A stretch of DNA of 57,318 bases. It comes from a bacterium (GTDB taxonomy: Bacteria > Chloroflexota > Dormibacteria > Aeolococcales > Aeolococcaceae). The notes below the pieces were generated by a model. The model searched no databases and was not told where the DNA came from. It was given only the letters and a program-made list of their open reading frames with translations. Of the stretch, positions 1-36,439 are shown one piece after another. Position 1 is the first letter of the stretch, and every line of letters begins with the position of its first letter. Where the stretch lies: the NCBI GenBank assembly GCA_014874355.1, contig JACWAJ010000054.1, positions 1 to 57,318 of the forward strand, in the 5' to 3' direction. The translations under genes and the position numbers were made by a program.

Positions 1-120
1 TCGGCTTCTCCGGTTCTCCCACGAGTACTGCAAGTACGCGTGGTGCGATCCTCGTGCGCCTCCTTGACCTCGGCGGCCGGTGCGGCACATCAGCGTCGCA
101 TTACTGAGACAGGCTGCTAG
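1..120. repeat. Truncated copy (right 120 bp) of the 182-bp TIR repeat; full copy at 35821-36002
   Basis: Positions 1-120 align without gaps to 35883-36002 with two mismatches (gcgatCctcg/gcgatTttcg; gtcgcAttac/gtcgcGttac); same ...GAGACAGGCTGCTAG end. Confidence 0.95.
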
Positions 121-28738: not shown

Positions 28739-30316
28739 ATGACCAAACCAACTGAGAGTTCTCGCCCGTACGAGGCCGAGCGGCGGGTCAATGTGCTGCG
28801 TCAGCGACGTCGTGATGCCATCCATCGTGGCGGTGCCGCCGAGAAGGTTCAACATCCCAAGGGCAAGCTGACCGCGCGAGAACGTGTCGATCGCCTTCTC
28901 GATCCGGGCAGTTTCCACGAGATCGATCTCTTTGCGGTGCACCGCACCAGCAACTTCGGCATGGCGGAACGGCGCATTCCCGGAGACGGCGTGGTAACCG
29001 GCTGGGGCACGATCGATTCGCGGCGAGTGTTTGTCTTCAGCCATGACGCATCGGTGTTCGGCGGATCCCTTGGAGAGGTCTTCGCCGAGAAAGTGGGCAA
29101 GGTCATGGACATGGCGATGCGTAGTGGGTGTCCGATCATCGGAATCAATGATTCGGGTGGGGCGCGTATTCAGGAGGGCGTGGTCTCCCTGGCGGGATAC
29201 GCGGATATCTTCCACCGTAACGTCGCGTTGAGTGGCGTGGTGCCGCAGCTGTCGCTGATAGCCGGGCCGTGTACTGGTGGGGCGGTTTACTCGCCTGCAA
29301 TTACCGATTTCGTATTCATGGTGCGTCGTATCGGCTACATGTTCATCACCGGTCCTGATGTCGTTCGGGTTACGACGGGTGAAACGGTGACGGCCGAAAC
29401 CCTCGGCGGCGTCGACGTTCACAACCAGCGCAGCGGGGTTGCCCATTTCGATGCCAACACTGAGGACGAGGCGTTCGTCCAGGTGCGAACATTGCTCGGC
29501 TTTCTCCCCAGCAGCAATGCCGACCAGCCTCCGTGCGGACCACGCGACGACGACCCGTTGCGTGCTGACGAGGCGTTGCAGGACATCATTCCCGCCAACC
29601 CCAACCACCCCTATGACATGTGCGACTTGGTGCATCGCATCGTGGACGATGGCAACTTCTTCGAGGTCATGCCGTTCTTCGCGCAGAACATCATCGTCGG
29701 CTTTGCACGGCTGGACGGTCATCCGGTTGGCGTTATCGGCAATCAGCCGCGCATTCTTGCCGGTGCACTAAATATCGATGCTTCGGTAAAGGCTGCGCGT
29801 TTCGTGCGATTTTGCGATGCGTTCAACATCCCGCTGGTGACATTCGTCGATGTGCCAGGGTTCTTGCCGGGTACCGAGCAAGAGTACGGCGGGATCATCC
29901 GGCATGGCGCCAAACTGTTGTACGCCTACTCCGAGGCGACCGTACCCAAGCTGACCGTCATAACCCGTAAGGCTTATGGCGGGGCCTATGACGTCATGTG
30001 CAGCAAGCACATTGGAGCGGACTTCAACTTTGCCTGGCCCAGCGCCGAAATCGCCGTCATGGGGCCGCAGGGTGCCGCCGGGATCATCTTCAAACGCGAG
30101 ATTGCCCAGGCCAAGAACCCCGCGGCGCGTACCGAGGAACTCGTCACCACATACCGCGAGCAATTTGCCAACCCGTACCATGCTGCAGAGCGAGGCTACG
30201 TGGACGACGTCATCGAGCCCAAGCACACGCGCATGGTGCTCATAGAAGCGCTACGTGTTTGCTCGGAAAAACGCGTCGATCGGCCCTGCCGCAAGCACGG
30301 CAACATTCCGCTCTAG
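28739..30316 (+). CDS. pccB: Propionyl-CoA carboxylase beta / carboxyltransferase
   Basis: HPKGKLTARERVDRLLDPGSFHEID; INDSGGARIQEGVVSLAGY; FVDVPGFLPGTEQEYGGIIRHGAKLLYAYSEATVPK. Confidence 0.92.
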   Translation: MTKPTESSRPYEAERRVNVLRQRRRDAIHRGGAAEKVQHPKGKLTARERVDRLLDPGSFHEIDLFAVHRTSNFGMAERRIPGDGVVTGWGTIDSRRVFVFSHDASVFGGSLGEVFAEKVGKVMDMAMRSGCPIIGINDSGGARIQEGVVSLAGYADIFHRNVALSGVVPQLSLIAGPCTGGAVYSPAITDFVFMVRRIGYMFITGPDVVRVTTGETVTAETLGGVDVHNQRSGVAHFDANTEDEAFVQVRTLLGFLPSSNADQPPCGPRDDDPLRADEALQDIIPANPNHPYDMCDLVHRIVDDGNFFEVMPFFAQNIIVGFARLDGHPVGVIGNQPRILAGALNIDASVKAARFVRFCDAFNIPLVTFVDVPGFLPGTEQEYGGIIRHGAKLLYAYSEATVPKLTVITRKAYGGAYDVMCSKHIGADFNFAWPSAEIAVMGPQGAAGIIFKREIAQAKNPAARTEELVTTYREQFANPYHAAERGYVDDVIEPKHTRMVLIEALRVCSEKRVDRPCRKHGNIPL

Positions 30317-34272: not shown

Positions 34273-34647
34273 TTATGATTCACTCAAGTGCAACATGCCG
34301 GTTGAAAGCTGATCCCTGACGGTGGCCAGCCACTCCGACATGGCAATGCCGTCCACCATGGGAAGGTAGTTGCACTCCAAGCCGGGATAGAGAACGCGTT
34401 CGATGTCGTCCTCTCCCAGGTGCAGGGTCAGGAGATCGCTCAGTTCGGCAATCGCGGCCTGGCACACCTGGGGCTCCGCCTCTGTCTTGAAGCCGGCGAT
34501 GGCTGTGGTGGGGTCGGAGTAGTCGAGTGTCCAGTCCTGGTGGAAGTAGCCTCCGAACAGTTGGAAGAGGGTTGGGTAACGGCGCGACGCTTCAGCTACC
34601 AGGCTTTCGATGTCCGGCTTATTCATGCCGGCAAAGTCTAGGCCCAC
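34273..34647 (-). CDS. CdiI-like contact-dependent growth inhibition immunity protein
   Basis: YPTLFQLFGGYFHQDWTLDYSDPTTAIAGFKTEAEP...LSDLLTLHLGEDDIERVLYPGLECNYLP resembles the CdiI fold family (GxYFHQDW). Confidence 0.65.
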   Translation of the reverse strand: MGLDFAGMNKPDIESLVAEASRRYPTLFQLFGGYFHQDWTLDYSDPTTAIAGFKTEAEPQVCQAAIAELSDLLTLHLGEDDIERVLYPGLECNYLPMVDGIAMSEWLATVRDQLSTGMLHLSES

Positions 34648-34663
34648 ACGCTACCGTTACCCC

Positions 34664-35824
34664 ATGGATTTCGAACTCAGTTCAGAGCAGCTCAGCGTCC
34701 GCGATCTCTGCCGCGACTTTGCGCGCAACGAAATTGCCCCCAAGGCTGCCGGCTTCGACGAGACCGGCGAGTTTCCCTATGCGATCGTCGCCGGAATGGG
34801 CAAGCTCGGGCTCTTCGCCATGCGGTTTTCTGAGTCGCTCGGCGGTGCGGGTGGTGACTTCCTCTCCTACTGCCTGGCGATAGAGGAGATCGCGCGCGCC
34901 GACGCCAGTTGTGCCATCACTCTGGCCGCCGCGGTTTCTCTGGGCATTGCTCCATTCGTGGAGTTCGGCACGGCGGCACAGCAGGAACGCTGGCTGCCGG
35001 CGCTGCTTTCCGGCGAGAAGCTGTGGGCCTTTGGGCTGACCGAGCCCGAGGCGGGTTCCGACGCGGGGGGGACGCAGTCGCGGGCAAGCCGCACTGGTGC
35101 CGAATGGGTGATCAACGGGCGTAAAGCTTTCATCACCAATGCGGGAACCAACATTTCCGCAGGGGTGACGATGACTGCGGTGACCGGCGGCAGTGAAGGC
35201 CATAAGCAGATCAGCTGCTTTGCGGTGGAGCGGGGGACGCCTGGCTATACTCAGGGGCCCAAGTACCGCAAGCTTGGCTGGCACGCTTCAGATACTCGAG
35301 AGTTGCTCTTCGATGATGTTCGTGTTCCGGCTGACAATCTGGTGGGCGAGGAGGGCGGTGGCCTCCGCCAGTTCCTGCGGATCCTCGAAGGTGGCCGTGT
35401 GGGCATGGCCGCGTTATCCGTGGGGGTGGCTCAGGCGTGTCTCGACGCCAGTATTGAGTACTCGACCCAACGCCGGCAGTTCGGGCAGGCGATCGCCGGT
35501 TTCCAAGCGACCCAGTTCAAGCTCGCCGACATGGCGACCCAGATCGAGATGGCCCGTCTATTGACCCACAAGGCGGCGTGGCTCTTCGATCACGGCGGCA
35601 AGCCGGGCGTCTATGCATCGATGGCCAAACTGCACGCGTCCGAGGTCGCCACCGCCTGCGCCGGCCAGGCGGTGCAGATTCATGGAGGCTATGGCTTCAT
35701 GGAGGACTTGCCGGTGGCGCGCTACTACCGCGACGTCAAGATCAACGAGATCGGCGAGGGCACCAGCGAGGTGCAGCGCATCCTCATCGCGAGACACCTC
35801 ATCAAGCGGTTTGAGGGGGCCTAG
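34664..35824 (+). CDS. Acyl-CoA dehydrogenase
   Basis: MDFELSSEQLSVRDLCRDFARNEIAPKAAGFDETGEFP; AFGLTEPEAGSDAGGTQSRA; QIHGGYGFMEDLPVARYYRDVKINEIGEGTSEVQRILIARHL. Confidence 0.95.
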   Translation: MDFELSSEQLSVRDLCRDFARNEIAPKAAGFDETGEFPYAIVAGMGKLGLFAMRFSESLGGAGGDFLSYCLAIEEIARADASCAITLAAAVSLGIAPFVEFGTAAQQERWLPALLSGEKLWAFGLTEPEAGSDAGGTQSRASRTGAEWVINGRKAFITNAGTNISAGVTMTAVTGGSEGHKQISCFAVERGTPGYTQGPKYRKLGWHASDTRELLFDDVRVPADNLVGEEGGGLRQFLRILEGGRVGMAALSVGVAQACLDASIEYSTQRRQFGQAIAGFQATQFKLADMATQIEMARLLTHKAAWLFDHGGKPGVYASMAKLHASEVATACAGQAVQIHGGYGFMEDLPVARYYRDVKINEIGEGTSEVQRILIARHLIKRFEGA

Positions 35825-36002
35825 CAGCCTGTCTCAAGTAATGCACCACTGCTGCCTCCACTCCGAATCACCGATCTCGGCGTCGGCTTCTCCGGTTCTC
35901 CCACGAGTACTGCAAGTACGCGTGGTGCGATCTTCGTGCGCCTCCTTGACCTCGGCGGCCGGTGCGGCACATCAGCGTCGCGTTACTGAGACAGGCTGCT
36001 AG
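35821..36002. mobile_element. 182-bp MITE-like repeat with CTAG-tipped terminal inverted repeats
   Basis: Left CTAGCAGCCTGTCTCAAGTAATGC, right end reverse complement CTAGCAGCCTGTCTCAGTAACGC; central palindrome CCACGAGTACT-GCA-AGTACGCGTGG; second copy at 1-120. Confidence 0.85.
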
Positions 36003-36439
36003 GCGATACCGGGTCGCGCAGGCGGCGTGCCCGTCTTTGGGGCGCGTGTCGACGGTTGGAACGGCCCGTTACCGGTGAGTTCATTCATCGCCTGGGTAAG
36101 GCTGTTGACGATGGTCTTGAAGAACTGTTCACACATGTCCCGGGCAGGCTTGTCGTTGCCAATGTTGTAGCCGGAGAAGTTCCCCATTATCTGGATGCGG
36201 GCGTACTCGGTCCCGCTGCCTGGCGCTGTCCCCGCCGCGGTGTAGCCTCGGGTTTCGAATACGAAGTACGCCCCGGCGCCCTCACCCAGGGTGATGTTGA
36301 CGTTGACTCTGCCGTTCCAGGCGCGGTAACTCTGGGCACTGGGGAATGCCTGCTGGCAGAACCTCTCGACGGCCTTGACACAGCTAGCTGCGCTGAGCGG
36401 GACGATCACCGAACGGCTGCTCACCTGTATATAGCCCAT
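35999..36439 (-). CDS. Hypothetical protein
   Basis: 146-aa ORF, protein-like composition; stop codon supplied by the repeat tip. Confidence 0.5.
   Translation of the reverse strand: MGYIQVSSRSVIVPLSAASCVKAVERFCQQAFPSAQSYRAWNGRVNVNITLGEGAGAYFVFETRGYTAAGTAPGSGTEYARIQIMGNFSGYNIGNDKPARDMCEQFFKTIVNSLTQAMNELTGNGPFQPSTRAPKTGTPPARPGIA

What the first reader, a model, noticed from the sequence alone, without database searches (positions are those of the whole stretch)
35821..36002. Small TIR element whose CTAG tips provide the stop codons of both flanking convergent genes
Seen directly: the 182-bp unit starts CTAGCAGCCTGTCTCA and ends TGAGACAGGCTGCTAG. The acyl-CoA dehydrogenase on + stops at TAG 35822-35824 inside the left tip; the hypothetical gene on - stops at TAG (cta, 35999-36001) inside the right tip. 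Deleting the unit with one CTAG leaves ...ggcCTAGgcg..., where both genes would have ended at one shared palindromic CTAG (context CCTAGG). The element may therefore insert at CTAG, duplicate it, and be neutral for both genes. In high-GC genomes CTAG is often rare in coding sequence apart from C-TAG stops, so CTAG preference alone could produce stop-codon targeting.
Basis: partly seen in the sequence, partly recalled or inferred. Interest (0 to 1): 0.8.

Follow-up and report, generated by a model that had tools for sequence, protein, structure and literature searches.

The report
MITE of an IS1182 transposon at CTAG
This is a small non-coding transposon, moved by an IS1182-type transposase, that inserts at and duplicates the four-base word CTAG; because CTAG is rare in this GC-rich genome outside non-coding DNA and "C-TAG" gene ends, insertions often land harmlessly exactly on stop codons.

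Summary
A 182-bp unit at 35821-36002 carries perfect inverted ends and a CTAG at each side. It is a MITE: 174 bp plus a duplicated 4-bp target. About 21 places in the 1.45-Mb source genome carry it, most near-identical copies at contig ends. One IS1182-family insertion sequence in the same genome (contig C32) has the same 20-nt left end, so it is the probable mobiliser. That the CTAG is a target-site duplication rests on three things: one old copy is flanked by CAAG/CAAG, 23 IS1182 elements from many phyla have CTAG on both sides, and two plasmid-borne IS1182 insertions have exact empty sites with one CTAG. CTAG is six-fold depleted here. Of 214 unoccupied CTAGs, 127 lie in genes, 59 are intergenic and 28 are C-TAG stops. 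The element almost never sits inside genes but occupies stops as often as intergenic CTAGs. Stop-codon landing is therefore real but follows from CTAG specificity, CTAG scarcity and selection; no extra stop-codon targeting is shown. The dehydrogenase stop is native; the minus-strand gene is an orphan ORF. The same-locus empty site could not be found. Verdict: new member of a known kind with an instructive target bias.

The parts
35821..35824 (.). left copy of the 4-bp target CTAG (target-site duplication); contains the TAG stop of the acyl-CoA dehydrogenase gene
   Evidence: TSD nature from the CAAG/CAAG copy and the empty sites of IS1182 relatives
35825..35998 (.). MITE proper, 174 bp, no transposase gene
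35825..35841 (+). left terminal inverted repeat CAGCCTGTCTCA plus AGTAA (12 nt perfect, then one extra A)
   Evidence: same end as the IS1182 element at C32
35983..35998 (-). right terminal inverted repeat CAGCCTGTCTCAGTAA read on the minus strand
35999..36002 (.). right copy of the 4-bp target CTAG; contains the TAG stop (cta) of the minus-strand ORF
34610..35824 (+). acyl-CoA dehydrogenase, 404 aa; C-terminal length matches relatives, so the stop is native and not a truncation
35999..36439 (-). predicted 146-aa orphan ORF ending at the right CTAG
1..120 (.). right half of another near-identical copy, cut by the contig end; its CTAG (117-120) is the stop of the minus-strand ORF 117-602
30313..30316 (.). 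unoccupied CTAG called as the shared stop of two convergent genes: a natural example of the inferred empty state

Best explanation
The unit is a miniature inverted-repeat transposable element (MITE) moved in trans by an IS1182-family DDE transposase. The transposase binds the ~16-20-nt ends (CAGCCTGTCTCAGTAA...), cuts the target with a 4-nt stagger at CTAG and leaves one CTAG at each side. CTAG is palindromic, so each copy can supply a C-TAG stop to a gene entering from its own side. A stop-to-stop CTAG shared by two convergent genes is therefore preserved for both. In this genome CTAG is six-fold depleted, and a third of the non-coding ones are C-TAG stops. CTAG-directed insertion plus loss of insertions that break genes puts many surviving copies on stop codons. 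Shown: the copies, the shared ends, the CTAG duplication in IS1182 relatives with empty sites, CTAG depletion, near-absence from genes. Inferred: trans-mobilisation by the C32 element, purifying selection, and the empty state at this exact locus.
For: About 21 places in the genome; 16 exact tips and none for the reversed control pattern. C32:1-1487 is an IS1182 element (NF033551, 365 bits) and the only match over that family's cut-off in the assembly. It starts with the same 20 nt CTAGCAGCCTGTCTCAGTAA and has CTAG at both ends. The C65 copy has the non-palindromic direct repeat CAAG/CAAG, so the 4 bp are target, not TIR. In 23 IS1182 loci from Chloroflexota, Actinobacteria, Proteobacteria, Planctomycetes and others, CTAG lies at both ends, and likewise in plasmid IS1182 elements including ISKpn6. 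Empty sites are exact with one CTAG: Roseomonas 600/600 nt identical, Bradyrhizobium full cover at 99.8% in four plasmids, checked base by base. Abutting elements share one CTAG (C11; Conexibacter). CTAG shows 235 observed versus 1419 expected; unoccupied CTAGs are 127 genic, 59 intergenic and 28 stops. Occupancy is about 6/34 at stops, 8/67 intergenic and 0-1/128 genic. Genes ending on the tips include complete-domain quinolinate phosphoribosyltransferase and an RsmB/F methyltransferase.
Against: No empty site was found for this locus, because the genus holds one genome and relatives at about 80% identity have other neighbours. Several copies have unequal 4-mers: TTAG/CTAG in C38, CTAG/CTCA in C61b and C42b. 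The C32 right end differs from the MITE tip at three of 17 positions. Beyond the ends the MITE interior does not resemble the C32 element. Twelve contig-end copies may be six copies cut in two, so site counts are uncertain.
Confidence: 0.9

Rival explanations
1. The element recognises gene ends or stop codons as such (for example through translation termination, transcription termination or a longer motif), beyond the CTAG word.
For: Stop junctions are 8 of 19 for CTAG-intact tips versus 30 of 428 CTAG directions (p 5e-5) and versus 30 of 174 non-coding CTAG directions (p 0.016). Several further copies lie 7-60 bp behind a gene end.
Against: Counted by site and with contig-end halves treated as possible pairs, 5-7 of 11 versus 28 of 87 non-coding CTAGs gives p 0.05-0.29. 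Occupancy of stops and of intergenic CTAGs does not differ (p 0.31). In IS1182 elements elsewhere most CTAG insertions are not on stops, nor are the two empty sites.
Confidence: 0.06
2. CTAG is part of the element's terminal repeat and not a duplicated target, so the tips themselves brought in the stop codons.
For: Nearly all young copies have CTAG at both ends; the word is palindromic, so repeat and TIR cannot be told apart in one copy.
Against: CAAG/CAAG direct repeat in the C65 copy; single CTAG in empty sites of two IS1182 relatives; acyl-CoA dehydrogenase relatives have C-termini of the same length.
Confidence: 0.03
3. The sequence is a conserved 3'-end regulatory hairpin (a terminator or mRNA 3' stabiliser) kept at gene ends, not a mobile element.
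For: It folds into a long hairpin on both strands (z -5.3 and -6.7) and often lies at gene ends.
Against: Copies are near-identical, have unrelated flanks, transposon-like ends shared with an IS1182 element and a 4-bp target duplication; copies also lie next to start codons (C61b, C42b).
Confidence: 0.03

Closest known systems
MITEPye1 of Paracoccus yeei (PMC11578231)
   Same: ORF-less, TIRs of ~18 bp matching IS1182-family ends, 4-bp direct repeats, long hairpin, mostly intergenic
   Different: different sequence and host; CTAG is not mentioned in the main text; 1-3 chromosomal copies versus about 20 here
IS1182 family insertion sequences (NF033551), e.g. ISPse1 (4-bp DR, PMC3281130), ISPsy36 (target GGCC, PMC8027508), ISKpn6
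   Same: same kind of ends and 4-bp duplication; CTAG at both sides of many members
   Different: they carry the transposase; some members use another 4-bp palindrome (GGCC) or replace hairpins without duplication (IS1272, PMC5678879, PMC4923244)
MITEPsy1 of Pseudomonas syringae (PMC3189936)
   Same: short MITE shown to transpose; inserts at CTAG or YTAA with a 4-nt duplication
   Different: ends related to ISPsy2 (listed there as IS5-type), not IS1182; some reported copies interrupt genes; no stop-codon bias reported in the passages read
IS630 (from memory, not checked here)
   Same: recalled preference for TA within 5'-CTAG-3'
   Different: 2-bp TA duplication and an unrelated transposase family

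Membership tests
MITE (miniature inverted-repeat transposable element) | short, no transposase gene | tested here: met
   182 bp; no transposase ORF in the unit
MITE (miniature inverted-repeat transposable element) | terminal inverted repeats | tested here: met
   perfect 16-18 nt arms
MITE (miniature inverted-repeat transposable element) | many similar copies with unrelated flanks | tested here: met
   about 21 places, 81-100% identity over the longer copies
MITE (miniature inverted-repeat transposable element) | target-site duplication | tested here: met
   CAAG/CAAG in C65; CTAG/CTAG elsewhere
MITE (miniature inverted-repeat transposable element) | autonomous partner with matching ends in the genome | tested here: met
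   IS1182 element at C32 with the same 20-nt left end
MITE (miniature inverted-repeat transposable element) | shown to transpose | not testable with these tools
   needs a transposition assay
IS1182-mobilised element with CTAG target | IS1182 relatives duplicate CTAG on insertion | tested here: met
   23 loci with CTAG on both sides; two exact empty sites
IS1182-mobilised element with CTAG target | empty site with one CTAG at this locus or another MITE locus of this genome | tested here: inconclusive
   no second genome of the genus turned up; relatives have other neighbours
element targeted to stop codons | stop codons hit more often than other non-coding CTAGs | tested here: inconclusive
   p 0.016 by junction, 0.05-0.31 by site

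The most novel reading that the evidence does not exclude
CTAG-specific IS1182 elements have evolved, or are kept, as stop-codon homing elements: in CTAG-poor GC-rich genomes the palindromic C-TAG stop is a safe harbour that leaves one or both convergent genes intact, and the lineage persists because of this target choice.
Probability: 0.12. Interest if true: 0.65.

Novelty: new member of a known kind. Interest (0 to 1): 0.36.

Why it matters
It gives a clean quantitative example of how a 4-bp target preference and genome-wide avoidance of that word together steer a transposon onto stop codons, with a palindromic duplication that keeps the stops of both convergent genes. It also shows that CTAG duplication is common across IS1182 elements of many phyla, with empty sites. 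This was not stated in the IS1182 papers read here. It lets MITE and IS ends be placed exactly.

Tried and rejected
The joined flanks of this locus in 31 family members found only the dehydrogenase half, so there is no direct empty site. The minus-strand ORF had no homologue in 100 relatives. 'Solo tips' (TIR-like 17-mers without partner at C6:49328, C6:62092, C38:7054, C6:10191, C38:19854 and C11:138) sit mostly at gene boundaries. Two are Shine-Dalgarno-like CTAGGAG before start codons. The M3-peptidase comparison was uninformative (relatives align only up to residue 607 of 613), so no claim is built on them. The Conexibacter genome gave too few copies to test stop landing. No held paper was found that states a CTAG target for IS1182.

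Full report
Observation. The sequence at 35821-36002 is exactly as described. The unit opens with CTAGCAGCCTGTCTCA and closes with its reverse complement. With the flanking GC/GC the arms are perfect over 18 nt. The acyl-CoA dehydrogenase on + (34610-35824; three Pfam domains) ends in the left CTAG. A 146-aa ORF on - (35999-36439) ends in the right one.

What it is. A DNA search of the source genome (1.45 Mb, 76 contigs, 98.8% complete) finds the unit at about 21 places. The tip occurs 25 times with up to two mismatches, and the reversed control never. Twelve near-identical copies stop at contig ends: six left halves and six right halves. The assembly broke at this repeat, and some halves may belong together. 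Complete copies have unrelated flanks. The unit carries no transposase gene and folds into a long hairpin on both strands. These are the features of a MITE.

Partner. Contig C32:1-1487 is an insertion sequence of the IS1182 family (NF033551, 365 bits). It is the only match over the family cut-off in the assembly. Its left end CTAGCAGCCTGTCTCAGTAA equals MITE tips over 20 nt, and its right end is CTAGCAGCCCGTCCCGGTAA. Mobilisation of the MITE by this transposase is an inference from the shared ends.

CTAG is a duplicated target. One old copy (C65) is flanked by CAAG on both sides as a direct repeat. CAAG is not palindromic, so the four bases are target and not part of the inverted repeat. Of the IS1182 relatives found in named genomes, 23 from many phyla have CTAG on both sides. 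So do plasmid-borne members, ISKpn6 among them. For two of these the empty site exists. Roseomonas mucosa AD1 carries the element, and NZ_CP024583 and NZ_CP034926 carry the joined 600 bases at 100% identity with a single CTAG. Bradyrhizobium 1S1 carries the element, and seven plasmids carry the joined 504 bases in full, four of them at 99.8%. Both were read base by base in one empty record each. Elements that abut share a single CTAG (C11; Conexibacter), as expected for one element inserting into the CTAG of another.

Why stop codons. In 419.5 kb of this genome CTAG occurs 235 times against 1419 expected from base composition. Of 214 CTAGs not occupied by the element, 127 lie inside genes, 59 are intergenic and 28 are C-TAG stop codons. 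Two of these 28 serve both convergent genes, for example 30313-30316 in the window. That is the state inferred for the locus before insertion. Of 19 element tips with intact CTAG, 8 are the stop of the incoming gene, against 30 of 428 CTAG directions (p 5e-5) and 30 of 174 non-coding directions (p 0.016). By site, and allowing for split copies, the excess over non-coding CTAGs is not significant (p 0.05-0.31). By contrast the near-absence from genes is strong (0-1 of 11 sites versus 127 of 214; p 8e-5 to 1e-3). CTAG choice plus loss of gene-breaking insertions is enough.

Neutrality. In relatives the dehydrogenase ends with a C-terminus of about the same length (IARHLLAPFAIE*, IARHLLRPFEVLED* against IARHLIKRFEGA*), so the stop is native. 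Other genes ending on a tip have complete C-terminal domains: quinolinate phosphoribosyltransferase at C18 and an RsmB/F-type methyltransferase at C40. The DUF58 gene at C61 may be a real truncation, because its domain match stops at 135 of 216. It was left out in the strict counts.

Limits. No second genome of the genus turned up in the searches, so this locus has no direct empty site. The minus-strand ORF is an orphan. Gene calls for the background came from a simple codon-usage caller written here. Three old copies have unequal 4-mers. The stretches used for the background were partly chosen because they hold copies, so absolute occupancies are inflated; only the comparison between classes of CTAG is meant.

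Place among known things. MITEPye1 is an IS1182-type MITE with 4-bp repeats (PMC11578231). MITEPsy1 inserts at CTAG or YTAA and has been seen to move (PMC3189936). ISPsy36, also IS1182, uses GGCC (PMC8027508). IS1272 replaces hairpins without duplication (PMC5678879, PMC4923244). The present element is a new member of this kind. The measured link between CTAG scarcity and stop-codon landing is the interesting part.

Noticed in passing
C6:49328, C6:62092, C38:7054, C38:19854, C6:10191 (loci L077, L073, L078, L085, L082); C11:138 (L083): Single TIR-like 17-mers (CTAGnAGCCTGTCTCAG, up to 2 mismatches) without a partner, mostly at gene boundaries; at C6:62092 the CTAG is the stop of a 613-aa peptidase-like gene, and at C6:49328 and C11:138 the inner TGA is the stop of an alanine-racemase-like and a trehalose-phosphate-synthase-like gene (names from reading the sequences, not searched). 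Remnant, chance or target preference was not settled.
   Followed up: partly
L053, L059 (genome G093); L207, L210: A second CTAG/TTAG-bounded MITE family in the same class, with ends (T/C)TAGCAGGCTGCTGAAAAAG that resemble those of IS1182-like elements L207 and L210; its core is 72% identical to the core of this MITE.
   Followed up: partly
L222 (NZ_OQ821139.1): ISKpn6 next to blaKPC-3 has CTAG at both ends, like the other IS1182 elements.
   Followed up: no
L015 (C61b), L018 (C42b): Two older copies have CTAG on one side and CTCA on the other, and on the CTAG side the neighbouring gene is called to start at the CTAG (CTAGATG, CTAGTG).
   Followed up: no
L134 (contig CALDJX010000210.1), left end of its IS1182 element: A TIR-like sequence lies outside the element (GGACACGCTG-CTAG-GAGCGTGTCC), as if two tips abut.
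   Followed up: no
window 30313-30316: One CTAG is called as the stop of two convergent genes with no element inserted.
   Followed up: yes
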